Shown one piece after another: positions 24,191 through 37,219 of a DNA stretch of 37,403 bases. Below the pieces are notes generated by a model. It was given only the letters and a program-made list of their open reading frames with translations. It did not search any database and was not told the DNA's origin. The DNA is from Thermodesulfobacteriota bacterium. Lineage in GTDB: Bacteria > Desulfobacterota > Desulfobacteria > Desulfobacterales > JAUWMJ01. The stretch is from assembly GCA_034189135.1 (NCBI GenBank), contig JAXHVO010000083.1, forward strand, positions 1 to 37,403, given 5' to 3'. Position 1 is the first letter of the stretch, and each line of letters starts with the position of its first letter. A program made the position numbers and the translations under genes.

Positions 24191-24691
24191 ATGGAATATC
24201 TTCTCAAATTCAGTGAGCTGAAAAAATATTTCCAAAAAGCTGATTTCTTTGATGTGAAAGTATTCCAAGGCAAGACCACATTGAGGAAATTTATTGCATC
24301 TATGTTGTCCTACTATCCATGGTGGATCGTCCAACTCTATCGTATCCGCAGGCTGCTCGTCGGCCTTTTGGGCCTTGTTAAACATGAAGCCCCGGAAAAT
24401 TTGCCCAACCTGAAACCGGAAGATGTTTCTTTTACCCCTGGAGACAATGTTACCTTTTTCATCGTTCGACGCGCCAAAGAGAATATCTTTTGGGTTTCGG
24501 AAATCCCTGATGACAAACATTTACGGGCATATTTCGGCGTTGTCAAAGAACCTGTAAGCCATTCTATTAATCGCTTCTACGTTATTACTACTGTTTTTTA
24601 TAAGCATTGGACAGGTTCGGTTTATTTTAATCTTATTCGACCGTTTCATCACCTGGTTGTTTCACGAATGGCTCAGCATGGGCTGAAGTAA
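24191..24691 (+). CDS. DUF2867-family protein
   Basis: A 166-residue protein that resembles the DUF2867 domain, also found at the C-terminus of some short-chain reductase-like proteins: a DFFDVKVFQGKTTLRKF opening, a mid part with DVSFTPGDNVTFFIVRR and DDKHLRAYFGVV, and the typical ending WTGSVYFNLIRPFHHLVV. No catalytic residues are known for this domain; a lipid or START-like pocket is conceivable. One hydrophobic stretch (about residues 36-62) may be amphipathic. It follows the RND gene by 49 bp and may be part of that transcript. Confidence 0.72.
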   Translation: MEYLLKFSELKKYFQKADFFDVKVFQGKTTLRKFIASMLSYYPWWIVQLYRIRRLLVGLLGLVKHEAPENLPNLKPEDVSFTPGDNVTFFIVRRAKENIFWVSEIPDDKHLRAYFGVVKEPVSHSINRFYVITTVFYKHWTGSVYFNLIRPFHHLVVSRMAQHGLK

Positions 24692-24727
24692 CCGAGTCAA
24701 CCATTTTATAGCTTAGGAATAACTCAG

Positions 24728-25279
24728 TTGGAAACCTACACTGAACCCAAAAAACTGGTTAAAAACATTGGTTATCAGGAACAAAAGCAACAAATGCTGG
24801 CCGGCCTCACTGATGGCATGATCGACGCCCCCATCATAGGACTGATTAAAACAATTAATCGCTTGCCTTATTGTTTCACCCTGCAATGCTGCTACGGGCA
24901 TTTTACCTACAACAGTCAGAATAATACCCACAACCTTGAACCGTTGCCGCGTACAGAAAAAATTGAGCGCGTGGAGTACAGGATTGCCTACATTGCCTTT
25001 TGTATTGAGCACAGTGCTTGGGGAAGAAGTCTCATTGCCGCTCTTAACAAAATCACTCATTTTGACCCGGAATACATACAGCTCTGCAGTGCAGAGTGGT
25101 TCTGGGAAAGACAGGTTAATTCTTATGCGTTACAGGTGGAGCCGGACAGGTTTAAGCATCAGGACAGAGTTATCCTTGATTATGACGAAGCATTGCATGT
25201 TGAAACCACACGAAATCAATTCTTTGACCACCTCAGAGAATTATTTCTAAACTTGTTGGAATCATCAGGTTATCGATAG
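24728..25279 (+). CDS. Unrecognised protein, 183 residues
   Basis: The start is TTG 24728 with AGGAA about 9 bases before; no ATG lies near. A soluble protein with a striking aromatic and Cys-rich segment INRLPYCFTLQCCYGHF (about residues 41-57) and a Trp-rich stretch near 120-130 (SAEWFWERQVNSYALQVEP). The first block vaguely recalls the TYW3 wybutosine-synthesis motif (S/T-S-C-x-G-R/H) but I do not claim the family. Strand-helix alternation suggests a single alpha/beta domain. It lies 36 bp after the DUF2867 gene, so the two are probably co-expressed. Confidence 0.55.
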   Translation: METYTEPKKLVKNIGYQEQKQQMLAGLTDGMIDAPIIGLIKTINRLPYCFTLQCCYGHFTYNSQNNTHNLEPLPRTEKIERVEYRIAYIAFCIEHSAWGRSLIAALNKITHFDPEYIQLCSAEWFWERQVNSYALQVEPDRFKHQDRVILDYDEALHVETTRNQFFDHLRELFLNLLESSGYR

Positions 25280-25352: not shown

Positions 25353-26090
25353 ATGCAAAACTATCATAAACAGAAATTTACCGCAGGAGGATACATTGAA
25401 TATTTCAAAAATCTAATATTGAATTTTCCCCAATTTCAAAAGCTGAAGAAAAAAAAAGGCCGTTATGTTGATATTGGATGTGGATCAGGAGAGCAAATTT
25501 TTTCCATTGCCCCTCATTTTGCACAATTCACATTCACCGGAATCGACCTGTCTAAGCCCAATATCTATGCCTGTAAGAAAGCGTTATCAAACATGTCCGA
25601 CCGTTCAAGATTTAACTTTATCCATGATGATTTCATTGAACACCCATTTAATAGAACGTTTGTCATGGCCTTTTCCTACTCTGTGTTCCAGCTTTTGGAT
25701 GCTTCGATTGATGATTTATTGAGACGGGTATGGAAATTGCTGGAACCCAACGGTTATCTTGTGTTGAGCATGCCGTATGCCTGCCGATACAACACTTGTT
25801 TAAATTATGTTAGAAAAATTTTAGGACTGCTTCGGTGTCATCTGTTTGATCGGCTTATTGTGGATATTGCCCACATGATGTATCGAAAGAAATTCTCTAA
25901 AACCTTCCTTCGTGAAAGGATGTTATACTTGGATCAGGTGGATCGCAATCTGTTCGATTTGAAGGCAACCAAAGCTCTAGACCAATTTTGGAAGATCGAA
26001 TTTCATGAGCAGACCCCCTCCCCCAGTTTTATTCAAAGCAGGCATATGTCGCTTATTTTGCGAAAAATCAATCCGCAACAAGCTTTCTAA
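25353..26090 (+). CDS. Class I SAM-dependent methyltransferase
   Basis: A 245-residue Rossmann-fold methyltransferase. Motif I is VDIGCGSGEQ at about residues 39-48, with the acidic loop FTGIDLSKPN after it and a later motif around FSYSVFQLLD, then LLEPNGYLVLSMP as the family's post-motif III strand. The C-terminal half (about 145-235) is a helical cap likely to hold the substrate. The start ATG lacks a clear ribosome site. Its 3' end overlaps by 23 bp the end of the convergent membrane gene at 26068. Substrate unknown. Confidence 0.85.
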   Translation: MQNYHKQKFTAGGYIEYFKNLILNFPQFQKLKKKKGRYVDIGCGSGEQIFSIAPHFAQFTFTGIDLSKPNIYACKKALSNMSDRSRFNFIHDDFIEHPFNRTFVMAFSYSVFQLLDASIDDLLRRVWKLLEPNGYLVLSMPYACRYNTCLNYVRKILGLLRCHLFDRLIVDIAHMMYRKKFSKTFLRERMLYLDQVDRNLFDLKATKALDQFWKIEFHEQTPSPSFIQSRHMSLILRKINPQQAF

Positions 26091-26439
26091 AAAAAGTGAT
26101 GGTGTCCTTTGTTTCCGCAATTAATGAATAAATAAGCACAGAAAATTGAAGACCGAAAATCACACTTTCCAAAATAAAGAACTGCCTCGGGGTTATGGTA
26201 AACAGCAGGAAAGGAACCAGTACAGCGGACATCCACATTAAAATATACCTAAATCTAATCTTTTGCTTTTGATTTTTTTCTCTGATCAAAGACGCAATTT
26301 TCAATATCACATAGATAATAACAACATCGGAGATGCTCCATAATATCCCCTGAACTTTTGTCGTCCACATATAGGCTCCGGTGGAAAAGTTTTTTCCTAT
26401 TTCAAAGAAAATCATATCCATTATATTTGAATTCATCAT
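26068..26439 (-). CDS. Membrane protein B of a two-gene W-x3-E/D helix pair
   Basis: A 123-residue protein with about three to four membrane helices. Residues 27-56 (TKVQGILWSISDVVIIY and on to LIREKN) carry one copy of the repeat found three times in the upstream partner: a small polar N-cap, W, three residues, then an acidic residue (here W34 and D38), then hydrophobic residues and a basic end. The ATG overlaps the partner stop as ATGA and has AAGGAAGG upstream, so the genes are translationally coupled. Its 3' end runs 23 bp into the convergent methyltransferase gene. I do not recognise the family. Confidence 0.65.
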   Translation of the reverse strand: MMNSNIMDMIFFEIGKNFSTGAYMWTTKVQGILWSISDVVIIYVILKIASLIREKNQKQKIRFRYILMWMSAVLVPFLLFTITPRQFFILESVIFGLQFSVLIYSLIAETKDTITFFRKLVAD

Positions 26440-27029
26440 ACCTTCCTTTTTAACAAGAAGAGGATTTTAAGTCCGATCAATCCAACCACCCATTCGATCA
26501 GAATCCAGAACATCCCGCATATTTTGATGTAAAAATTAAACATATTTTGCATGTTTTTAGGGTGATACCGATCCATATCCGCCAATGTGCCAACATAGCA
26601 ATGATAGCTGATATAAACAGCAACTAGAAACACCAAGAATATACCCGGACCAAATAAAAGAGTATTATTAAGTATTGATTTTTTCTTTTCTAAAGCCATT
26701 CTCAACAGATTATAGATTTGGAAAACATAAATTGCGATCACCGCTTCGATTGCCACCCACAGCGTGCAAAAGAAATTCCATAAGTAGCTGTAGTAGAAAT
26801 GTCCCAAGGACCTGTATTTAATCCCCAAATATGTGTCGATATTTATCTCTTCGCCGAAGTTTAAACAAACAAGAATAATAAAAAAAGTGATGCAAAAGAA
26901 GACAAATTCTCTTTGTCGCGCTTCTCCTTTTTTCAGGAAGAGGAAGCTTTTTCTGATATAAACCATGACCAGTCCTTCGGCAAAGAGCCAGAAGATTCCC
27001 ATGATCTTTATAAACAGTGATATGCTCAT
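26436..27029 (-). CDS. Membrane protein A with three W-x3-E helix repeats
   Basis: A 197-residue, six-helix membrane protein. Three segments share a pattern: residues 7-36 (IKIMGIFWLFAEGL), 83-112 (LWNFFCTLWVAIEAV) and 168-197 (IKICGMFWILIEWV). In each, Trp is followed three residues later by Glu (W14/E18, W91/E95, W175/E179) and the helix ends in basic residues. The first and last copies are closest, IKIxGxFW, suggesting duplication. Polar and aromatic loops lie between. The ATG follows AGGAGAGG. A buried Glu after Trp is unusual and might bind a cation or cofactor, which is speculation. No family recognised. Confidence 0.7.
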   Translation of the reverse strand: MSISLFIKIMGIFWLFAEGLVMVYIRKSFLFLKKGEARQREFVFFCITFFIILVCLNFGEEINIDTYLGIKYRSLGHFYYSYLWNFFCTLWVAIEAVIAIYVFQIYNLLRMALEKKKSILNNTLLFGPGIFLVFLVAVYISYHCYVGTLADMDRYHPKNMQNMFNFYIKICGMFWILIEWVVGLIGLKILFLLKRKV

Positions 27030-27487: not shown

Positions 27488-28186
27488 ATGATGCTTAAAT
27501 CATTTTTTACAGCAAAAACCGTTCAATGGCTTTTTCCCCTAGTCATTATAATTCTCTGGGGAAATCAGGCCCCGGCAGAAGTAAAACAAGAACATCCGGT
27601 ATTCACCTTTCGACTTCTTTTAACCGAGAAGAAATGCCAGATGGCTATTTGGGTGACCGATAAACACGGGGTCTTTGTGGAAACTGTCTATATCACCCGG
27701 AAAATCGCTAAAAAAGGGCTGGGAAATCGCCGTGGTGGATTGGATGACAAATGGGGTGGTGCCCGTTTAAGTGCTTTGCCTGTATGGGCTTACAGCCGTG
27801 GTGTGGACTATGGTAATGGAAATTTCTATCCTCCTAAACACATGCCTCTGCCGGATGCTATTTCTTCGGCCACACCCAAAGCAGGAGAATTCATTTGGAA
27901 ATGGCAACCCCAACAGGCTCTTAAACCGAGTCAATATTTTTATTACATCGAAGTCAATAAGAGTTTTGATCAAAACGAACAGCACCACTACAGCTGGTAT
28001 CGCGGTCAACCCTCTGTGGTATGGCAGGGAAGTATCCAGGTTGGCAATGAAACTTCGAAAAGCGAAGCTAAAATGATCGGGCATGGAGATGTGGATGGAA
28101 AAAGCGACCAAATCAACCCTGCCCTGTCAACGCTTACCACTTCTCTGGGATTAATCGAAAAAGCCGAAGCCGTTTATGATCCATAG
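27488..28186 (+). CDS. DUF2271-type periplasmic protein
   Basis: A 232-residue exported protein with a signal peptide: a basic N-terminus, a hydrophobic core ending near APAEV, then a mature part. IWVTDKHGVFVETVYITRK (about residues 54-72) and LPDAISSATPKAGEFIWKWQ (about 120-140) are the DUF2271 pattern, a beta-sandwich-like domain often found near flavin-transfer (ApbE) or redox proteins; no ApbE is present here. The start is ATG 27488 or the adjacent ATG 27491, after an AGGG. Function unknown; not obviously in an operon with the ATP-grasp gene 120 bp downstream. Confidence 0.7.
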   Translation: MMLKSFFTAKTVQWLFPLVIIILWGNQAPAEVKQEHPVFTFRLLLTEKKCQMAIWVTDKHGVFVETVYITRKIAKKGLGNRRGGLDDKWGGARLSALPVWAYSRGVDYGNGNFYPPKHMPLPDAISSATPKAGEFIWKWQPQQALKPSQYFYYIEVNKSFDQNEQHHYSWYRGQPSVVWQGSIQVGNETSKSEAKMIGHGDVDGKSDQINPALSTLTTSLGLIEKAEAVYDP

Positions 28187-28306
28187 GCTGTATCAATGAA
28201 ATGGCTCTACGTTCAACTGGGCCATGCATACACATCTCAGCAACCTCTTTGCAGGACCAACTGAACTTAACCAATCCCTTTTTGAACTAAGAGCAGGTAG
28301 ATAAAC

Positions 28307-29479
28307 ATGTTTTTTTTAGACAAACCATATGTTTCGAATTTTTTCAAAATGACTGTCAGGGATAATGACATCCCGGTGGTCGGTACGGATATAGCAAATG
28401 ATTTAGGCCTTTATAATGGGACAAAGGTAATCAGCGAACAAAAAGCGATTGCAATGGCTCGAGAGCTGAGTAATCCCCCCATCTATACTACATCAGAAAA
28501 TTCAATCGGTTGGATATCGAAGCATTTGCCTTTTTCCAAACTTCCGGAAAAAATAGAGCTGTTCAAAGATAAACTAAAATTTCGTGAATTAACCAGACCG
28601 ATCTTCCCCGATTTCTACTTCAAAGAGGTTCTGGCGGAAAACTTGAAAAAGATCCGGTTTAACCAAATCTCACGACCATTTATAATCAAGCCAGCTGTTG
28701 GTTTTTTTAGTATGGGTGTCCATAAGGTCTCATGTTACCAAGAGTGGGTTCGCACCATTGATTCTATCACCGGCGAAATCAACCAAATTAAAAATCGATA
28801 CCCTAAAGAGGTGTTAAGCACCCGTTCTTTTATTATTGAACAATGTATTGATGGCGAAGAATTTGCAGTCGACGCCTATTATAATTCGACCGGTGAACCG
28901 GTTATTCTGAGCATCTTTAAACATCCTTTTTCTTCGGGCAACGATGTAAGTGACCGGGTTTATATTTCTTCCAAACAGATTATCGAAAATAACCTGGAGG
29001 AATTTACCGGTTTTTTAGCAAAAATTGGCAATTTGGCTGGAGTAAAAAATTTTCCGGTCCATGTTGAGCTTAGGCGAGACAAAAGGGGGACCTTATTACC
29101 GATCGAAGTAAATCCAATGCGGTTTGGCGGTTGGTGTAGCACACCAGATATATCCTTTCTGGCCTATGGATTTAATCCTTATCTATATTATTATTTGCGT
29201 AAAAAACCAGACTGGTCTGAGGTTCTTAAAGGAAAAGAGGGAAAACTATACTGTATTATCGTATTGGAAAATTCCACCGGCATAGACGTGGCTAAAATTT
29301 CATCATTCAACTATGAAAAGTTACTTTCAAATTTTGAAAATCCACTAGAGCTTAGAAAAATTGATTATAAAAAACACTCAGTCTTCGGCTTCTTGTTCAC
29401 GGAAACCAGAGAAAACAATTTTAACGAGCTTAAAAACATTCTCGATTCGGATTTGAATGAATTTATATCAATCCGATAG
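28307..29479 (+). CDS. ATP-grasp family ligase-like enzyme
   Basis: A 390-residue protein. The ATP-grasp core is visible: RPFIIKPAVGFFSMGVH (nucleotide-binding Lys and glycine-containing loop, about residues 120-136), FIIEQCIDGEEFAVD (about 177-191) and the metal-binding VHVELRRDKRG...LLPIEVNPMRFGG (Glu and Asn, about 250-275). The N-terminal about 90 residues form the pre-grasp part. Such enzymes form amide or similar bonds via acylphosphate intermediates; the substrate is unknown. AGGTAG before ATG 28307 supports the start. It lies 95 bp before the BtuC-type gene, where a substrate-binding protein gene might be expected. Confidence 0.82.
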   Translation: MFFLDKPYVSNFFKMTVRDNDIPVVGTDIANDLGLYNGTKVISEQKAIAMARELSNPPIYTTSENSIGWISKHLPFSKLPEKIELFKDKLKFRELTRPIFPDFYFKEVLAENLKKIRFNQISRPFIIKPAVGFFSMGVHKVSCYQEWVRTIDSITGEINQIKNRYPKEVLSTRSFIIEQCIDGEEFAVDAYYNSTGEPVILSIFKHPFSSGNDVSDRVYISSKQIIENNLEEFTGFLAKIGNLAGVKNFPVHVELRRDKRGTLLPIEVNPMRFGGWCSTPDISFLAYGFNPYLYYYLRKKPDWSEVLKGKEGKLYCIIVLENSTGIDVAKISSFNYEKLLSNFENPLELRKIDYKKHSVFGFLFTETRENNFNELKNILDSDLNEFISIR

Positions 29480-29574
29480 TATAATAGCTTCATTCACTAA
29501 GGTTTTCCTCTGTTAAGGATTATCAGTTGGAAAGACCTTGACTGAACACCGAACCATTTTTTATATTCGATTAA

Positions 29575-30579
29575 ATGTCACAAAAACCATTTATTATAAA
29601 ACGGCTCCTGGTGGTTTCCTTTTTGCTGCTGGTCCTGCTAATTTTGTCCACATTTCTGGGTCTTTCCATGGGGTCTTCCGGAAACGGCGCAAATGCCGTT
29701 TTTAAATCGCTGTTTGGGGTGAATGAAGCTGATTCCATGATTCATACCATTATCTGGAAGATTCGTTTACCTCGTGTGCTTCTGGCAGCCCTTGTAGGTG
29801 CAACGCTTTCACTGGGCGGACTTGTTTTTCAGGCACTTCTTAGAAACCCGCTTGCCGAGCCTTACATTCTTGGAATTTCAGGCGGATCCGCTATTGGTGC
29901 AATAATCGGCATACTGGCCGGACTATCCCGTTTTCCGGGCGTCAGCCTCACCGCCTTTCTGGGAAGTATTGCCACCCTTCTTTTAATCCTTGCCATGTCA
30001 TCCGGACAAACGATCCTTAAAAAAGATTCCCTGCTGCTATCGGGGGTGATGGTGAATGCCTTCTGTTCTGCCATTATTATGTTCCTCATATCGATCACGC
30101 AGGACTCACGGATCCATAATATCATCTTCTGGCTCATGGGGGATCTTTCCATGAGTGACCTGAAGCAGGTTGAAATGCTTTCTCTGACACTTGTTCCCTG
30201 TTTTATTATCATATTCCGTTACTCGCACACCATGAACCTCCTCCTTATGGGAAATGAAATGGCCCAGACCATGGGGGTGAACATTAAACGAGTCACCACT
30301 ATTCTGCTTGTCACCACATCTTTTATGGTCAGTTCCACCGTCAGTCACTGTGGCCTGCTCGGTTTTGTCGGACTGGTTATGCCCCATCTTTTTCGGCTTA
30401 TGCTGGGTTCTGACCACCGTATCCTCGTTCCGGCATGCATTCTTGGGGGTGGATCATATATGGTTTTCTGTGACCTGATGTCGAGAATCCTTTCGCAACA
30501 TGGAGAAATGCCTGCAGGAGTGATTACTGCCATGATCGGGGCACCTCTATTTATATACCTTTTAAAAAGATCAAAATGA
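29575..30579 (+). CDS. btuC: FecCD/BtuC-type ABC transporter permease
   Basis: A 334-residue inner-membrane protein with about ten helices. Signatures of the family are seen: IRLPRVLLAALVGATLSLGG, QALLRNPLAEPYILGISGG, GLLGFVGLVMPHLFR and DLMSRILSQHGEMPAGVITAMIGAP. It would transport iron-siderophore, heme or cobalamin. Cobalamin is favoured because the cobamide synthesis operon converges on it, but the family alone cannot decide. The ATG has no clear ribosome site, which is odd. The stop overlaps the ATPase start as ATGA, so the two are coupled. No substrate-binding protein gene is beside it. Confidence 0.85.
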   Translation: MSQKPFIIKRLLVVSFLLLVLLILSTFLGLSMGSSGNGANAVFKSLFGVNEADSMIHTIIWKIRLPRVLLAALVGATLSLGGLVFQALLRNPLAEPYILGISGGSAIGAIIGILAGLSRFPGVSLTAFLGSIATLLLILAMSSGQTILKKDSLLLSGVMVNAFCSAIIMFLISITQDSRIHNIIFWLMGDLSMSDLKQVEMLSLTLVPCFIIIFRYSHTMNLLLMGNEMAQTMGVNIKRVTTILLVTTSFMVSSTVSHCGLLGFVGLVMPHLFRLMLGSDHRILVPACILGGGSYMVFCDLMSRILSQHGEMPAGVITAMIGAPLFIYLLKRSK

Positions 30580-31376
30580 AGAATAGCGCTGTTGACATAA
30601 CCAATCTCAGTTTTACCTACCGCAATCATCCTGTGTTGCATCATTTGTCCTTTTCTGTTTCGCAAGGCGAATTTTTTATCATCATTGGCCCCAACGGCTC
30701 AGGAAAAACAACCCTGATGAAAATAATGGCCGGAATCCTGAAATCCAAAATAGATGAGGTTAAAGTTTTTAACCAACCTCTCAAAGAATATACCCGGAAT
30801 GATCTGGCAAAAATAGTTGCCATTGTTCCCCAGATGGCGGTTGCTGATTTTCCTTTTACAGTCACGGAACTGGTCCTTATGGGACGCTCTCCCCATCTGA
30901 ATGTGCTGGGCTTGGAACAGCAAAAAGATCTTGAAATTGCGCAAAATGCCATGGCCTTTACCGAAGTTGAACATCTGGCTCATAGAAAAGTGGATCAATT
31001 GAGCGGAGGCGAATGCCAGCGTGTTTTCATTGCCAGAGCAATCTGCCATGAACCAAAAATAATCCTGCTAGATGAGCCCACCGCATCCCTCGATCTTGCT
31101 CACCAGCTTAAAATTATGGATTTGATGGAAAAGTTGAAAATTCAACGCGGGATGACGGTGATAATGGTATCCCATGATGTAAATCTGGCGGCCATGTATT
31201 CTGATCGGCTGTTGCTGCTAAAAAATGGAGAAATTGCCGGTCTGGGAAAACCGGATGAAATATTGACCTTGCAGATACTAAAGGAAACATACGATTGCAG
31301 GCTTTTGGTTGATGAAAGCCCGGTGGGTAAATTCCTCAGAATTACACTGGTGCCTGAAAAGCATCAGCCTAAATGA
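30576..31376 (+). CDS. btuD: BtuD/FecE-type ABC transporter ATPase
   Basis: A 266-residue ATPase that powers the permease encoded just before. Walker A is GPNGSGKTT (residues 38-46), the signature LSGGE is 141-145, Walker B is IILLDEP ending near 167, and the H-loop is VSHD. The PQM Q-loop is at about 84-86. Overlaps the btuC stop by four bases. The stop lies 23 bp from the convergent cbiR stop, with no clear terminator in between. Assignment to cobalamin rather than siderophore import rests on context. Confidence 0.85.
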   Translation: MKNSAVDITNLSFTYRNHPVLHHLSFSVSQGEFFIIIGPNGSGKTTLMKIMAGILKSKIDEVKVFNQPLKEYTRNDLAKIVAIVPQMAVADFPFTVTELVLMGRSPHLNVLGLEQQKDLEIAQNAMAFTEVEHLAHRKVDQLSGGECQRVFIARAICHEPKIILLDEPTASLDLAHQLKIMDLMEKLKIQRGMTVIMVSHDVNLAAMYSDRLLLLKNGEIAGLGKPDEILTLQILKETYDCRLLVDESPVGKFLRITLVPEKHQPK

Positions 31377-31399
31377 TGATACTGTTGCAAAAAGTCACG

Positions 31400-32203
31400 T
31401 CAACAACTTAGTTTATGCCACCATTTTTCCAGAAATACCAATGATGTTGCCAAATCGTGGTATGAAAAGACTTCCAATGACACAGTTTGAGAAAATTGAT
31501 TTAATATCCCAATGATCTCCTCCGCCCTTTCTGCTGCTAAACGTGTCAATGAAAGGTGGTCACAGCCGTTTTCAACGCCATGAAGGTGTATAATGGATAT
31601 ATGGTTATCGTGGTCACTAAAAAATCCCTCTAGATCCTCACCCCTCACCATAAGATGCCCCATATCCATGCAAACGGTAAAATTAAATTCCCTCACCATA
31701 TCTTCCACCCATGCAAAAGGATAATTTATATTCTCAATCGATATGTCTTCAGCTTTTGCTCCTAAGTTCACTAACCGATTAATCGCTTCGTATATACGCT
31801 CCCGCCATTTTTGCACCATCTCTTTTTCACCCGAAGTTTCATCGTATGATAAATGGAGGGTGCAGGTAGACGGGCATAAGGGTGAGCTTAAATCAAGCAC
31901 ACGCAGTATGGTTTCCACCGCATGATGTCGTGGGGATGGATCTTTATGCCCGAATGATATATCTGTTGGCAGATGAATGTTATAGGTAAGATCGAATTCT
32001 GCTGACAGAAGTGAAAGCGCACCGATATCATTTTGCCCGGGGAGGCTGCCCGGTTGACTTTCAAATAGCAAAAGCTCTATCTCATCTATATACGGTCCAA
32101 GCATGGTTACATTGGGCACATAACCGTCCGAATAGATAAAGGATGTGGTGCCGATTTTAAACGGGTACACGCCTTTGTATGATTTTGGCAGAGGCAGATG
32201 CAT
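31400..32203 (-). CDS. cbiR: CbiR-type cobamide-remodelling hydrolase (AP-endonuclease-like TIM barrel)
   Basis: A 267-residue TIM-barrel protein of the sugar-isomerase/AP-endonuclease-2 superfamily. Segments carrying likely metal ligands include CTLHLSYDE, ISIENINYPF, VCMDMGHLMV and IIHLHGVENGCDHL. CbiR enzymes (first shown in Akkermansia) cut the nucleotide loop of unsuitable cobamides to release cobinamide-type precursors for rebuilding with the preferred lower ligand. It starts 3 bp after the cbiB stop and is the last gene of the operon, exactly where such an enzyme would act with CbiB. The family call combines fold pattern with this context. Confidence 0.8.
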   Translation of the reverse strand: MHLPLPKSYKGVYPFKIGTTSFIYSDGYVPNVTMLGPYIDEIELLLFESQPGSLPGQNDIGALSLLSAEFDLTYNIHLPTDISFGHKDPSPRHHAVETILRVLDLSSPLCPSTCTLHLSYDETSGEKEMVQKWRERIYEAINRLVNLGAKAEDISIENINYPFAWVEDMVREFNFTVCMDMGHLMVRGEDLEGFFSDHDNHISIIHLHGVENGCDHLSLTRLAAERAEEIIGILNQFSQTVSLEVFSYHDLATSLVFLEKWWHKLSC

Positions 32204-32206
32204 TGA

Positions 32207-33169
32207 TTAAAATAGAAATAGAAAAACCGTTACCCCACATAATGTGACAAGCCATATCACCGAAGACAGTACCATTAGATCGCAGGCTTTTTTTATATGG
32301 ATGATTTCTGCTTCCCCGAAAAACTCTCCTATAAACGGCTTATGAACCAGCCGGCCGTGATAGTAATTGGGGCCGCCGAGCTTTATTCCCATGGCGCCGG
32401 CAAATGAAGCTTCGGGAAACCCCGCATTGGGGCTTGAGTGATTTTTTCCTTCTTTTATGGCGGTTTTTAACGCACGCCACCCTTTTTGTAAAACGAGTTG
32501 GGCAGACAGCGATATAATGGGTACTGACAGGCGGGCAGGAACATAATTGGCAACATCGTCTATTCGTGCGGCTGCTTTGCCAAAATGAACATACGTTTCA
32601 TTTTTATACCCAACCATGGAGTCTAACGTATTCACCATTTTATAGGTTAGTGCAAGTGGAGCGCCTCCGATAACGGCAAAAAATAAAGGTGCGATAACGC
32701 CATCCACCAGGTTTTCAGCAACGGTCTCAACGCAGGCCCTGATCATTCCTCTTTCAGTCAGTTGTTTGACATCTCTGCCCACTATACATGAAAGTTTTAT
32801 TTTTGCTTCCTCTATTTTATTCCTGACCAATGATCGCTTTACTTCCATGGCCGCTTGTCTGAGCGATCTAACCGAAATACACCAGTAAATCAGTACAGTT
32901 TGCAAAACCATTTCAACTACCGGATGTATTTTTCTCGCAATAACCACCAAGCCAAAACTCATTATCCAGGTGGAAATTATGAGAATGAGCGCGAAAAAGG
33001 TTCCGTAAACTGTGAGATTTTTTGAATTTTTTCTAAATGCAGGTTCAAATCGTTCAATCGCTTTCCCCATCCATCGAATGGGGTGGGGAAGAAACAGAGG
33101 ATCACCGACTATCAGATCGAGAACAACAGCAGCAGGAAGAATAATGAATAATCCACACGATTCCATCAT
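32207..33169 (-). CDS. cbiB: Adenosylcobinamide-phosphate synthase CbiB
   Basis: A 320-residue membrane protein that joins (R)-1-amino-2-propanol phosphate (or a similar amine) to adenosylcobyric acid. Conserved blocks are DLIVGDPLFLPHPIRWMGK near the N-terminus, ENLVDGVIAPLFFAVIGG, KMVNTLDSMVGYKNE, IDDVANYVPARLS and SPNAGFPEASFAGAMG. Four to five membrane helices are apparent. The start ATG overlaps the cobD stop as ATGA, so the two genes are coupled, which fits CobD making the CbiB substrate. Confidence 0.92.
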   Translation of the reverse strand: MMESCGLFIILPAAVVLDLIVGDPLFLPHPIRWMGKAIERFEPAFRKNSKNLTVYGTFFALILIISTWIMSFGLVVIARKIHPVVEMVLQTVLIYWCISVRSLRQAAMEVKRSLVRNKIEEAKIKLSCIVGRDVKQLTERGMIRACVETVAENLVDGVIAPLFFAVIGGAPLALTYKMVNTLDSMVGYKNETYVHFGKAAARIDDVANYVPARLSVPIISLSAQLVLQKGWRALKTAIKEGKNHSSPNAGFPEASFAGAMGIKLGGPNYYHGRLVHKPFIGEFFGEAEIIHIKKACDLMVLSSVIWLVTLCGVTVFLFLF

Positions 33170-34257
33170 GGGTTGCTTATATCCGATATTAAAACAGCCA
33201 GTTTATCCGCAAACATCCGGTTCACATTCTCTGTGTTCAAGGAGAAACGGATAAATTGTTCGGAAAGTCCTTTGAAATTAGAACAGTTTCGTAACAGTAT
33301 TTTCTCGTGTTGCAATTGTTCGCAAACTTCTCCGGCAGTAACGATGTCCGGCAGTTTGGCAAGCATGAAAGCCACCTGACTTGGGATTACTTTTATCCGG
33401 CCGGTCGACTCTAGTGTTTCAGCCAGCTTTTCTCTTTCGTTTTTAACAAATTTTCGCGTCTGCTCAACAAAACGGTCTATCTCACTTTTGTTCATCATCA
33501 GGTAAGATGCTGCCGCTTGCGCAAGGCTGTTCACACTCCAGGGAAGCATGTATTTTTTGAATTTGCGGATGATGCCTTTTGCTGCAATTAAAAATCCAAT
33601 CCTCAGTCCGGGAATCCTGAATATCTTGGACATCGAATTTAAAATCACTACATTGGCAAAACCGGAGCAAATCATGCTTGCTTTTTCACCGTTTTCCACA
33701 AACGCAAGGTAGGATTCATCTATGATAAAATGGGTATGGGGAAAAGATCGGCAAATAAAAATTATTTTTTCAGGGGATATCAATGTCCCTGTTGGGTTGT
33801 TGGGGTTACAGATAAAAACCGTATCATACCCCTTGATTTCATTTTTCAACGCATTAATATCGACCTCAAATAAAAGCGACTCGGAGGCTATAAAAAAATC
33901 AAACTCGACCCTATGCATTCGGCAGGCATCGGCATAATCGGAATATGTGGGTCCGATTATCAGCGCTTTCTTTGTTTCCAGCACTTGTGGAATGGCATAT
34001 ATTAACGGAGTGGTTCCGCTTCCTGCTAAAATACATTCAGCATCTAAACCGCATCGCTGGGCAAATTCGGTTGATATTTCTTTTGCATCGACTTGAGGAA
34101 GTGCGGTGATTAAATTTAACCTTTTTTGTAAATGCACTTTCAGACCTGGTGGGGGGCCCAGAGGATTCACATTGCTGCTCATGTCGATAATTTCACCAGG
34201 CTGGCAACCAAGTCTGGTGGCAACATCATAAATATTTCCACCGTGGCCTTTTATCAT
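33166..34257 (-). CDS. cobD: L-threonine-O-3-phosphate decarboxylase CobD (aminotransferase fold)
   Basis: A 363-residue PLP enzyme of the histidinol-phosphate aminotransferase type. The PLP lysine is K211 in LNSMSKIFRIPGLRIGF, with D180 in IIDESYLAF as the ring-nitrogen partner and the phosphate-side segment NPNNPTGTLI. The opening HGGNIYDVA is typical of CobD rather than HisC. It makes aminopropanol phosphate from L-threonine phosphate. GGAG lies six bases before the ATG. Gene order with cbiB confirms the role. Confidence 0.9.
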   Translation of the reverse strand: MIKGHGGNIYDVATRLGCQPGEIIDMSSNVNPLGPPPGLKVHLQKRLNLITALPQVDAKEISTEFAQRCGLDAECILAGSGTTPLIYAIPQVLETKKALIIGPTYSDYADACRMHRVEFDFFIASESLLFEVDINALKNEIKGYDTVFICNPNNPTGTLISPEKIIFICRSFPHTHFIIDESYLAFVENGEKASMICSGFANVVILNSMSKIFRIPGLRIGFLIAAKGIIRKFKKYMLPWSVNSLAQAAASYLMMNKSEIDRFVEQTRKFVKNEREKLAETLESTGRIKVIPSQVAFMLAKLPDIVTAGEVCEQLQHEKILLRNCSNFKGLSEQFIRFSLNTENVNRMFADKLAVLISDISNP

Positions 34258-34278
34258 TCAATCTCCATTATTCTTTTT

Positions 34279-35025
34279 TCAAAACAGCCGAATCGAAGCC
34301 AATAAAAAAAGCCCTGCTTCCAATATTTCGACCATTGCTCCCAGCATATCACCGGTGACACAGTCCATTTTTTTTTTGTAAAACCACAGCACACCGGCAG
34401 TAATCATCATAAAAGCAAGGTTCAGCAAAACAGCCTTCAGCCCAAGAAAAATTGAAAGGAAAACAGGAATCACCAATGCCGAAAATCCGATTGCCTTAAG
34501 CCTGGTTGCAAAAAACAGTTTGCCTGTTCCGCCATCCGTTCTTCCGTATTTCAAAAAGCGAATTCCGCATAAAATACCTCCCCTGGCATAGGAAGGAATG
34601 ATAATCAGTAAAAGACTTCTAGATGCATCTAAACCGGTGATACCAGCCCACTTCGCAGATAATCCACCCATAATGGCAACCATACCCATTACGCCGATTC
34701 TGCTGTCTTTCATTATGGATAGTGCCTTTTCCTTGGTTCGGCCTCCATAAAGTCCGTCAGCGGTATCTCCCAAACCGTCAACATGAAACGCACCGGTGAT
34801 AAGAATCAGAAAAATTACATCAAGAAGGCTTGCCACCGGTTTTGACCACAGCAGTAACCCAATCTTGTCGAACAGCGCCACCATCAATCCCAGCACAATA
34901 CCGACCACAGGAAATAAAGGAATCATCTTTTCCGCATTGAATTTTCCATGCTTCCCCAGAGGAATTATGGTGATAAACTGTATTGCTGCTATCAGATTTT
35001 TCATATAGGCGCTTAGTAACGTCAT
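34279..35025 (-). CDS. cobS: Cobalamin (5'-phosphate) synthase CobS
   Basis: A 248-residue membrane protein that joins adenosylcobinamide-GDP to the lower-ligand riboside. The signature GAFHVDGLGDTADGLYGGRTKEKAL (Asp-rich Mg/phosphate site) and KDSRIGVMG are present, with several membrane helices. ATG 35025 and ATG 35004 are both possible. The second begins MKNLIAAIQFITIIPLG, the more usual CobS opening; neither has a clear ribosome site. A 158-bp gap with heptamer arrays separates it from cobU upstream, so expression may depend on read-through. Confidence 0.9.
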   Translation of the reverse strand: MTLLSAYMKNLIAAIQFITIIPLGKHGKFNAEKMIPLFPVVGIVLGLMVALFDKIGLLLWSKPVASLLDVIFLILITGAFHVDGLGDTADGLYGGRTKEKALSIMKDSRIGVMGMVAIMGGLSAKWAGITGLDASRSLLLIIIPSYARGGILCGIRFLKYGRTDGGTGKLFFATRLKAIGFSALVIPVFLSIFLGLKAVLLNLAFMMITAGVLWFYKKKMDCVTGDMLGAMVEILEAGLFLLASIRLF

Positions 35026-35081
35026 TTAGACGAATTGTTGTCGATATCAGCCAACATGTTGTTTCTATGTTGAAAGATGGC

Positions 35082-35183
35082 GTTACGGGTTACGAGTTGC
35101 GAGTTGCGAGTTTAAAATCGGAAATAATCCTTTTTTATAACACGAAACCCGTCACACGTAACCCGCAACTCGTAACCCGCAAC
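35082..35183. repeat. Inverted arrays of a 7-bp repeat (GTTRCGR) between cobU and cobS
   Basis: The left array (35082-35109) has four units GTTACGG, GTTACGA, GTTGCGA, GTTGCGA followed by GTTT. The right array (35145-35183), read on the minus strand, has five units GTTGCGG, GTTACGA, GTTGCGG, GTTACGT, GTGACGG followed by GTTT. The two arrays face each other across about 31 bp and can fold into an imperfect hairpin. The right array touches the cobU stop codon. Confidence 0.8.
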
Positions 35184-35705
35184 TTACTTGATCACAATAG
35201 GAATGCCCGCAACCATCCATATTACCCTGTCGGCAACTTCGGCCACCTTTTGGTTGGTAAATCCTGCCAAATCCCTATACTGTCTGGCAAGCCTGTTTTC
35301 CGGGACAATTCCCGCCCCGACTTCATTTGAAACCAGTATGATGGAACATTTTACTTCTTTAAGAGCAAGGATGAATTGATGGATTCTTTGCTGGATACCA
35401 TCAGGGTCTTCCGTTTCCATGAGCAAATTGTTTATCCACAAAGTCAAACAATCGACTAGGATAATGTCCCCTTCCCTGCTGTTTTTATTGATTGCGGCCG
35501 ACAGTTCAACCGGAGCTTCAACTGTTTTCCAGCTTTTGTCTCTTTCTTTTTTATGGCGATCGATCCTGTCTTTCATTTCATCATCAAAGGGAATGCAGGT
35601 TGCGATAAAGATTTTTTTACTTGCTGCAATCTTTTCAGCCTGTTCAAGCGCTTGCCAGCTTTTACCGCTTCTGCATCCACCGATAATCTGAATTATTTTT
35701 TTCAT
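35184..35705 (-). CDS. cobU: Adenosylcobinamide kinase/guanylyltransferase CobU
   Basis: A 173-residue bifunctional enzyme that phosphorylates adenosylcobinamide and then attaches GMP. The P-loop GGCRSGKS is at residues 9-16. The histidine that accepts GMP lies in RIDRHKKERDKSWKTVE, and VDCLTLWINNLL and SNEVGAGIVPENRLARQYRD are further CobU blocks. The start ATG overlaps the cobQ stop as ATGA, so translation is coupled. Its stop codon is immediately followed by the heptamer repeat region. Confidence 0.92.
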   Translation of the reverse strand: MKKIIQIIGGCRSGKSWQALEQAEKIAASKKIFIATCIPFDDEMKDRIDRHKKERDKSWKTVEAPVELSAAINKNSREGDIILVDCLTLWINNLLMETEDPDGIQQRIHQFILALKEVKCSIILVSNEVGAGIVPENRLARQYRDLAGFTNQKVAEVADRVIWMVAGIPIVIK

Positions 35706-37219
35706 TCATTCACCTGTGAAATAATGGATTCGGTAATTCCTTTTGTATCAATATATTTCTCAAAATGCTCACAGAGAAGATCGTATTCCTTATTTCGTGC
35801 TGCAGGGCCATGGTCCTGAGAAACTTCCACCTTCCCCAGTCCAATAGTTTCCAGCCATCGCTTGGTAATACCGGGATTCTCAAACAGGCCGTGCATATAA
35901 GTTCCCATGATGCGAAATCCACCGACCACGCATCCATCCTTACAGTTGCAAGATACATTGTTTCGCTGGAAAACCTGAAACATGGAATCACCTTTTTTAA
36001 TTTCTGTTTGTCCCATATGAATCTCATAGGCAATTCCATCCATATCATCCCAGCAAAACCGAGTCAGAGTCGTGATTTTCGGAGCTTTTAAAATAGTTTC
36101 CACCGGCAAAAGAGAAAGCCCTTTGGTGGTACCGGGTTTTCCTTCAAGCCCATCAGGATCGTGGACATACTTCCCCATCATCTGATAACCTCCGCATATA
36201 CCAAGCATGTGCCCACCATGGTTTATATATGATAAAATTTTTTCCCACCACCCTGTTTTTTTCAACCAGGTAAGATCAAAACGGGTGTTCTTCGATCCTG
36301 GAATGATAATCGCCTTGAACCCGGCTAGTTCCTGAGGTTTTTCAACAAAATGAAGATTAACCCCGGGCAGTCTGGAAATAGGATCAAAATCGGTAAAATT
36401 TGAAATGTGTGGTATTCGCAATACAGCAATTGACGGAGGACTATCACTGGTCATACCAATGCTCTGCGGGTTTTCGATGATAACCGAATCCTCTGCTTCT
36501 ATATTAATATGGTTATACCAGGGAAGTACACCAAACACTTTTTTCCCTGTCTTGTTTTCTATCCAGCTTATTCCGTCTTCAAACAGAGCCATATCCCCCT
36601 TGAAACGATTAATAATAAACCCGGTAATTCTTTTTTGCTGTTGAGGTGACAGACATTCCAGCGTGCCGATTATCTGCCCGAATACACCGCCTTTGTGAAT
36701 ATCGGCTACCAGAATAACCGATGCATCAGTATATTCAGCCATGCTGAAGTTAACCATATCGTTGGGCATGAGGTTGACCTCTGCACATGAACCGGCACCC
36801 TCAAGTACCACCACATCGTACTTGCCTCTTAATCTGTCGACAGCTTCACAGACATTTACGAACAAATGCTCTTTTTTAGTATGATATTCTGACGCCTGTT
36901 TGTTTCCAGCTGCCTTTCCGAAAAGTATAATCTGTGAGCCTATGTCACTGGTGGGCTTTAAAAGGATAGGGTTCATATCCACATGGGGAGGAATCCCGGC
37001 AGCCTCGGCCTGGACAATCTGTGCTCTTCCCATTTCCAGCCCTTCCGGGGTGACGCCGGAATTGTTGGACATATTTTGCGCTTTAAACGGTGCAACATTT
37101 ATCCCCTTGTTTTTCAAAAACCGGCAAAGAGCAGTTGAAATAATACTTTTCCCCACATCGGAACCTGTACCAAATACGGCAATACACGGGGCCTTTTTAT
37201 TTTCTTCTTTAAAATCCAA
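35702..37219 (-). CDS. cobQ: Cobyric acid synthase CobQ/CbiP
   Basis: A 505-residue ATP-dependent amidotransferase that adds four amide groups to the adenosylcobyrinic acid a,c-diamide ring. The N-terminal synthetase domain holds FGTGSDVGKS (residues 16-25) and FKAQNMSNNSGVT. The C-terminal class I glutaminase domain has the nucleophile C342 in LGICGGYQMMG and H443 in YMHGLFENP. The start TTG at 37219 gives MDFKEENKKA before the ATP loop; a ribosome-like AGGTGAG lies about 20 bases upstream, which is far. First gene of the leftward operon. No B12-riboswitch element was recognised in the 184 bp upstream that are visible. Confidence 0.92.
   Translation of the reverse strand: MDFKEENKKAPCIAVFGTGSDVGKSIISTALCRFLKNKGINVAPFKAQNMSNNSGVTPEGLEMGRAQIVQAEAAGIPPHVDMNPILLKPTSDIGSQIILFGKAAGNKQASEYHTKKEHLFVNVCEAVDRLRGKYDVVVLEGAGSCAEVNLMPNDMVNFSMAEYTDASVILVADIHKGGVFGQIIGTLECLSPQQQKRITGFIINRFKGDMALFEDGISWIENKTGKKVFGVLPWYNHINIEAEDSVIIENPQSIGMTSDSPPSIAVLRIPHISNFTDFDPISRLPGVNLHFVEKPQELAGFKAIIIPGSKNTRFDLTWLKKTGWWEKILSYINHGGHMLGICGGYQMMGKYVHDPDGLEGKPGTTKGLSLLPVETILKAPKITTLTRFCWDDMDGIAYEIHMGQTEIKKGDSMFQVFQRNNVSCNCKDGCVVGGFRIMGTYMHGLFENPGITKRWLETIGLGKVEVSQDHGPAARNKEYDLLCEHFEKYIDTKGITESIISQVNE

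What the first reader, a model, noticed from the sequence alone, without database searches (positions are those of the whole stretch)
26068..27029. Unrecognised two-gene membrane system built from a repeated W-x3-E/D helix
Two overlapping, translationally coupled genes encode proteins in which four helices share the same layout: small/polar start, Trp, three residues, an acidic residue, hydrophobic run, basic end. Three copies are in protein A (W14/E18, W91/E95, W175/E179) and one in protein B (W34/D38). Acidic residues buried in membrane helices are costly and usually functional. I know of no named family with this arrangement, so it may be a new membrane sensor, channel or carrier module.
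Basis: partly seen in the sequence, partly recalled or inferred. Interest (0 to 1): 0.6.

Follow-up and report, generated by a model that had tools for sequence, protein, structure and literature searches.

The report
New paired membrane proteins with repeated helix
Two adjoining bacterial genes encode a matched pair of membrane proteins, built around a repeated helix with a buried acid, that fit no catalogued family we searched and probably form one small membrane machine, perhaps a transporter or channel.

Summary
Two overlapping minus-strand genes encode A (197 aa, 5 predicted membrane helices) and B (123 aa, 3). Helices A1, A3, A5 and B1 share the W-x3-E/D layout. In 14 homologous pairs the three A glutamates never vary where covered; A tryptophans vary only in the most divergent member. 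B's W34 is invariant, but its acid is D in 10 and N in 4. Profile comparison of all eight helices links only the four marked ones. A and B co-occur: the same 8 of 389 class genomes carry a full A and a B, one of them with the genes on different contigs; A is followed by B in 13 of 14. The marked helices are predicted parallel, running out to in. No Pfam, NCBIfam or PADLOC family and no solved chain matched convincingly; predicted structures of modest confidence gave no informative match. Best reading: an obligate 8-helix complex whose buried carboxylates bind protons or cations, most likely a transporter or channel. The complex is well supported; the activity is inferred. The family looks new; sensor, channel or carrier cannot yet be told apart.

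The parts
26436..27029 (-). Protein A, 197 aa, 5 predicted membrane helices, with W-x3-E in helices 1, 3 and 5
   Evidence: ORF; hydropathy; 14 sequences aligned, window included
26068..26439 (-). Protein B, 123 aa, 3 predicted membrane helices preceded by an N-terminal helix; W34-x3-D38 in helix 1, E91 and Q98 in helix 3
   Evidence: ORF; hydropathy; 14 sequences aligned, window included; helices in the fused model of the L009 homologue
26436..26439 (-). ATGA overlap of the A stop and the B start
   Evidence: sequence; spacing between -20 and +42 nt in 12 of 14 pairs, counted from the coordinates
26976..26990 (-). W14-x3-E18 codons (A helix 1)
   Evidence: W in 12 of 13, E in 13 of 13 sequences that cover it
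26745..26759 (-). W91-x3-E95 codons (A helix 3)
   Evidence: W in 13 of 14, E in 14 of 14
26493..26507 (-). W175-x3-E179 codons (A helix 5)
   Evidence: W and E in 14 of 14
26326..26340 (-). W34-x3-D38 codons (B helix 1)
   Evidence: W in 14 of 14; D in 10, N in 4 of 14

Best explanation
A and B are the two obligate subunits of one small inner-membrane complex of at least eight membrane helices. Four parallel helices (A1, A3, A5, B1), each running from outside to inside, place a tryptophan and, one turn deeper, a carboxylate (Asn in some B proteins) in the membrane. I infer that these helices pack against each other and that the glutamates form a protonatable or cation-binding site, so that the complex works as a proton- or cation-linked transporter or a cation channel. 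Shown here: gene pair, co-occurrence, repeat, residue conservation, likely topology. Inferred: physical complex (about 0.85), clustering of the acids (about 0.6), transport or channel activity (about 0.4).
For: The same 8 of 389 class genomes have a full A and a B. G025 keeps both although its genes are on different contigs. In the order of G724, 5 of 85 genomes have A and each of the 5 has B, next to A. A is followed by B in 13 of 14 pairs. A and B distance matrices correlate, r = 0.94 for 13 pairs, as expected of a co-inherited pair. E18, E95 and E179 persist even in L047, the most divergent member, which has lost W14 and W91. The repeat helices match only each other. Basic residues concentrate after all four marked helices. 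Neither protein has room for a soluble domain, and the AF2 models are all helix.
Against: No substrate, partner or constant neighbouring gene points to transport. B D38 becomes N in 4 of 14. Conservation moments of the marked helices are weak (p 0.05-0.42) and partly circular, since W and E feed them; E18 lies 82 degrees off its helix's moment, so a shared buried face is not demonstrated. By hydropathy the B acid lies at a different depth (7 of 21) from the A ones (13-15 of 21). Model confidence is modest (pLDDT 68 and 62, pTM 0.59 and 0.54) and I could not read contacts from it. G168 has a 31-aa A fragment at a contig end but no B in its assembly.
Confidence: 0.4

Rival explanations
1. Membrane sensor or signal-relay module: the bundle binds a ligand or senses membrane state and talks to a separate kinase or regulator.
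For: In L046 a PAS-histidine-kinase-receiver gene ends just before A. In G025 a gene that reads like a hybrid kinase is convergent with A (read from its sequence, not searched). In L010, L011 and L040 genes that read like two-component proteins lie a few genes away (not searched). The structural neighbours that span the whole models are mainly 7-helix receptors, at noise level.
Against: Apart from L046 and G025 I saw no kinase directly beside the pair in the stretches listed, some of which are only about 3 kb; such genes are common in these bacteria (general knowledge). No cytoplasmic output domain in A or B. Z near 8.5 is within the range the tool gives for chance helical bundles.
Confidence: 0.2
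2. Intramembrane enzyme or assembly factor (for lipids, quinones or a respiratory complex): conserved E, C88, C171, Y and Q residues form an active or docking site.
For: Y79, T89 and Y167 in A and Q30, Q98 in B are invariant; C88 and C171 in A are lost only in L047.
Against: No catalytic family matched; no linkage to a complex seen.
Confidence: 0.2
3. A divergent, split relative of a known multi-helix membrane family that HMMER and Foldseek cannot reach.
For: Sub-threshold matches: B to TRAP DctM (Pfam, 1 of 10 members, E = 0.065; PDB 7qha by profile, E = 0.036), B to a phage holin family (window B, E = 0.031), A to TMEM127 (4 of 10 members, best E = 0.041) and MgtE (1 of 10, E = 0.15), and L047 A to ArAE_2_N (E = 0.0026, below its cut-off).
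Against: Apart from TMEM127, these hits mostly differ from member to member, as expected of hydrophobic composition.
Confidence: 0.15
4. The motif is a coincidence of ordinary hydrophobic helices in an orphan gene pair.
For: B alone: one W-x3-[ED] is expected by chance in 18% of shuffles.
Against: Conserved across 14 pairs down to 20% (A) and 27% (B) identity; cross-matching helices.
Confidence: 0.03

Closest known systems
PACE efflux family (AceI; tandem BTP domains, PF05232)
   Same: Small bacterial membrane protein with an internal helix-pair repeat and a membrane-embedded glutamate motif in helices 1 and 3 (PMC6195760, passages read).
   Different: No PF05232 match in any of 14 A or 14 B; PACE has 4 helices in one protein and the motif RxxhaxxfE; here 5 + 3 helices in two proteins and W-x3-E.
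Small multidrug resistance family (EmrE)
   Same: Membrane-embedded glutamate in a short membrane protein (listing and starts of abstracts only); some members work as unequal pairs (recalled).
   Different: No match to its Pfam family among the hits; about 110 aa, 4 helices and one key Glu per subunit (recalled); no W-x3-E repeat (recalled).
Mitochondrial calcium uniporter MCU
   Same: Tetramer of two-helix subunits whose DIME Asp and Glu form carboxylate rings (PMC6347451, passages read); with the W that precedes DIME (recalled) the spacing is also W-x3-E. A+B would likewise give four marked helices and eight in all.
   Different: No Asp after the Trp and no Pro after the Glu; acids lie inside the helix instead of at a pore entrance; helix order differs; no MCU Pfam match. 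A resemblance of layout only.
7-helix receptors (TAS2R14 and others)
   Same: Best structural neighbours that span most of both models.
   Different: Foldseek E of 0.64 or worse and Z at the chance level for helical bundles; profile match to a neuropeptide receptor only at E 0.043; two subunits with 5 + 3 helices.

Membership tests
PACE / BTP (PF05232) | Match to the BTP profile | tested here: not met
   No PF05232 at E <= 1 for 14 A and 14 B
PACE / BTP (PF05232) | Four membrane helices in one protein as two tandem pairs | tested here: not met
   5 + 3 predicted helices in two proteins
PACE / BTP (PF05232) | Membrane-embedded Glu in helix 1 | tested here: met
   E18 in 13 of 13 that cover it
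MCU | DIME signature within W-D-x-x-E-P (flanks recalled) | tested here: not met
   No D after W and no P after E in any aligned copy
MCU | Tetrameric pore with carboxylate rings | not testable with these tools
   Model coordinates are not readable here
SMR (EmrE) | Match to the family's Pfam profile | tested here: not met
   Not among hits at E <= 1
SMR (EmrE) | Proton-coupled transport of cations | not testable with these tools
   Needs an assay
TRAP large permease (DctM) | Pfam match above cut-off | tested here: not met
   E 0.065 in 1 of 10 B members
7-helix receptors | Shared fold | tested here: inconclusive
   Z up to 8.6, within chance for helical bundles; Foldseek E >= 0.64

The most novel reading that the evidence does not exclude
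A and B together form a pseudo-fourfold ion pathway from two unequal subunits: four parallel W-x3-E/D helices (three from A, one from B) line a central pore or site inside the membrane, surrounded by four plain helices. This would be a channel or carrier architecture reached independently of MCU-type channels.
Probability: 0.12. Interest if true: 0.75.

Novelty: categorically new. Interest (0 to 1): 0.45.

Why it matters
If right, a conserved but uncatalogued two-subunit membrane machine exists in these sulfate-reducer relatives, with three invariant buried glutamates that can be tested by single changes. An internal repeat shared between two unequal subunits would also show how a membrane complex can be divided across two genes. 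'New' refers to the protein family as judged by the libraries searched here; as a mechanism it may still prove to be an ordinary transporter.

Tried and rejected
Families: no match above cut-off in Pfam or NCBIfam, none at all in PADLOC, and none better than E 0.031 in PHROGs. Pfam covered all 14 A and 14 B; NCBIfam 12 of these 28 proteins; PHROGs and PADLOC 8 each. Weak hits set aside as hydrophobic composition: TMEM127 (4 of 10 A members, best E 0.041), a phage holin family (window B, E 0.031), DUF2070, MgtE, DctM, HGSNAT_cat, MerC, ArAE_2_N and others. PDB sequence searches at E <= 10: none for window A, one at E 1.1 for window B, a neuropeptide receptor in three records (best E 0.043) for the A profile, a TRAP permease (E 0.036) and a rhodopsin (E 1) for the B profile.

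Structure comparison: nothing at E <= 0.001 in the PDB or in viral models; best VIA-align Z 8.7 covers 85 residues of a designed protein. With models of this confidence that is no evidence for a new fold.

Defence or phage origin: window A has no match in phage or plasmid records, the A profile no relative in viral contigs; B was not searched there. In G025 B lies between a subtilase and a protein with an iSTAND domain and a sub-cut-off trypsin-like match, but I saw this in one locus only.

Gene context: no neighbour is constant beyond close relatives. Three loci (L010-L012) share an antiporter gene and an RRM gene upstream (L010 is cut within the antiporter), but these are near relatives.

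PACE searched by profile in 96 relatives: none, but the 14 control genomes did not ring either, so this says nothing about its presence.

Fused alignments A4 and A7 were discarded because MAFFT laid A's repeat helices on B's first helix. A8 avoided this by giving B rows without helix 1, so B's N-terminal helix and helix 1 in the model rest on one sequence.

Shared conserved face by helical wheel: not demonstrated.

Name coincidence: the WxxxE motif of some secreted bacterial effectors (recalled) was set aside because A and B are multi-pass membrane proteins.

Limits of the counts: the genome searches draw a sample and score only the best first-look candidates per genome (8 or 11), so weak relatives can be missed; that searches drew the same 389 genomes is judged from the handles printed, not from a full list. 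In the order of G724, B was sought only in the five genomes with A, so lone B genes there are untested.

Rows dropped before counts: other copies of the same species or of the window (L001, L002, L007, L015-L018, L020, L021, L025, L028-L037); L048's partial A and L045's partial B (near-identical copies at contig ends in G831, counted as one pair: A from L045, B from L048); the A fragment in G168; weak matches with in-frame stops (L003-L006, L024, L027). L013's pair uses A from L013 and B from G025 (L008), the A sequences of L013 and G025 being alike. L014's A reads in two frames; only the open part was used.

Full report
What is there. Hydropathy gives 5 membrane helices in A and 3 in B. The gene beyond B is a convergent methyltransferase that overlaps B's end by 23 bases; upstream of A lie two short unassigned open frames and then a gene running the other way. 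The pair is AT-rich (35.6% G+C against 44.3% for the window; 0.3% of sampled spans of that length are as low).

Is the repeat real? Three W-x3-[ED] in A exceed composition (p = 0.0011); one in B does not (p = 0.18). The family makes the case. Cutting the alignments of 10 A and 10 B homologues into eight 29-column helices (9 rows for A1) and comparing all 28 pairs with hhalign, the six pairs among A1, A3, A5 and B1 scored 14-95% (A3-A5 highest, A3-B1 lowest) and the other 22 at most 5%. MAFFT also laid A's repeat helices over B's first helix in two mixed alignments, a by-product sign of their likeness.

Homologues. A scan of 84,980 bacterial and archaeal species genomes with two peptide patterns from a two-row A alignment gave 6 loci, all titled as deltaproteobacteria or Desulfobacter- and Desulfobulbus-type bacteria; such a scan misses distant relatives. 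Genome searches gave for A 10 of 389 class genomes at E <= 0.001 (8 full, one 31-aa piece at a contig end, one broken by stops) and for B 8 of 389, the same 8; 2 of 395 phylum genomes for A and 3 for B, one of them broken by stops; and 5 of 85 for A in the order of G724. Two incomplete genomes of the window's own genus have neither. The distribution is patchy. After removing copies, 14 A and 14 B sequences remain (window included), 20-88% and 27-87% identical pairwise.

Pairing. A is followed by B on the same strand in 13 of 14 (spacing -20 to +42 nt in 12, +157 in L047; coordinates). The exception, G025, has the genes on different contigs; its A sits between a 442-aa gene and a convergent gene, so the separation is not a contig edge. 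Co-occurrence despite separation argues for joint function, though it is one case.

Residues. E18 in 13 of 13 that cover it, E95 and E179 in 14 of 14. W14 in 12 of 13, W91 in 13 of 14, W175 in 14 of 14; both losses are in L047, the most divergent member, which keeps all three glutamates. In B: W34 14 of 14; D38 is D in 10 and N in 4, the four N all from one family of genomes (f34); E91 is E in 13 and D in 1; Q30 and Q98 14 of 14. C88 and C171 of A are lost only in L047. The glutamates are the most constant part of the motif, and B's acid the least.

Topology. Mean K/R against D/E per loop: A N-terminus 0/0, loop 1-2 4.1/1.1, loop 2-3 2.8/2.2, loop 3-4 3.3/1.3, loop 4-5 2.1/1.4, C-terminus 2.9/0.2; B N-terminus 1.0/2.1, loop 1-2 4.6/0.9, loop 2-3 0.8/0.6, C-terminus 3.2/2.1. 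The excess of basic residues follows each marked helix, which predicts that all four run outside to inside, in parallel. The A acids fall at positions 13-15 of a best 21-residue span and the B acid at 7, so equal depth is not shown. Helical-wheel moments are weak (p 0.05-0.42).

Structure. L009's A and B lie in one frame, so they were folded as one chain by reading the A stop as Ala: pLDDT 68, pTM 0.59, nine helices (5 of A, an extra N-terminal helix in B, and 3). A alone gave pLDDT 62, pTM 0.54. Foldseek found nothing at E <= 0.001 in the PDB or in viral models. The neighbours that span most of the fused model are receptors at Z about 8.5, which the tool's note places within chance for helical bundles. 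I cannot say from this that the fold is new, and I could not measure contacts.

Families. No curated family is matched above cut-off, nothing in PADLOC, nothing better than E 0.031 in PHROGs. The nearest by design are PACE pumps (PMC6195760, passages), EmrE-type transporters (listing and abstract starts) and, for the W-x3-E spacing and the count of four marked helices in eight, MCU (PMC6347451, passages; the W before DIME is recalled). Each fails a defining sequence feature tested here. Literature searches listed no paper that I recognised as describing such a pair; they cover open-licence papers and few terms, so they do not prove absence from print.

Mechanism. Shown: gene pair, co-occurrence, shared repeat, invariant glutamates, probable parallel orientation. 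Inferred: a physical complex (0.85), clustered acids (0.6), and proton- or cation-linked transport or conduction (0.4). Sensor, enzyme or assembly factor, and undetected split relative of a known family remain open at about 0.2, 0.2 and 0.15.

Verdict. The pair is a new family by the libraries searched, of moderate interest until an activity is found.

Noticed in passing
26068-27029: The A-B stretch is among the most AT-rich of the window (35.6% against 44.3% G+C). For A the closest homologue by identity is L044 (46%), from another order of the phylum; for B it is L009 (52%, same order) with L044 next (51%). Transfer between orders is possible but not shown.
   Followed up: partly
L041 7367-10443: In G025 the unlinked B lies between a subtilase (PF00082) and a protein with an iSTAND domain and a sub-cut-off trypsin-like match.
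   Followed up: partly
L042 4377-5705: In G025 a 442-aa protein without a Pfam match at E <= 0.001 ends 4 bases before A.
   Followed up: partly
L010 3-1325; L011 3743-5976; L012 62-2421: In three close relatives A-B follows a Na+/H+ exchanger fused to a PTS EIIA domain (profile checked in L011 only; L010 is cut at its contig end) and a glycine-rich RRM protein (profile checked in L010 only).
   Followed up: partly
24191-25279: DUF2867 protein at 24191-24691 (E 8.8e-27) next to a protein with a sub-cut-off TYW3 match (E 0.0017) at 24728-25279.
   Followed up: no
27488-37219: Protein with a sub-cut-off DUF2271 match at 27488-28186 (E 0.00085), upstream of genes that read like an iron/cobalamin ABC importer and a cobalamin biosynthesis cluster (names from reading, not searched).
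   Followed up: no
L014 1096-1636: The A gene reads in two frames here: a natural frameshift or an assembly error; B is open.
   Followed up: no
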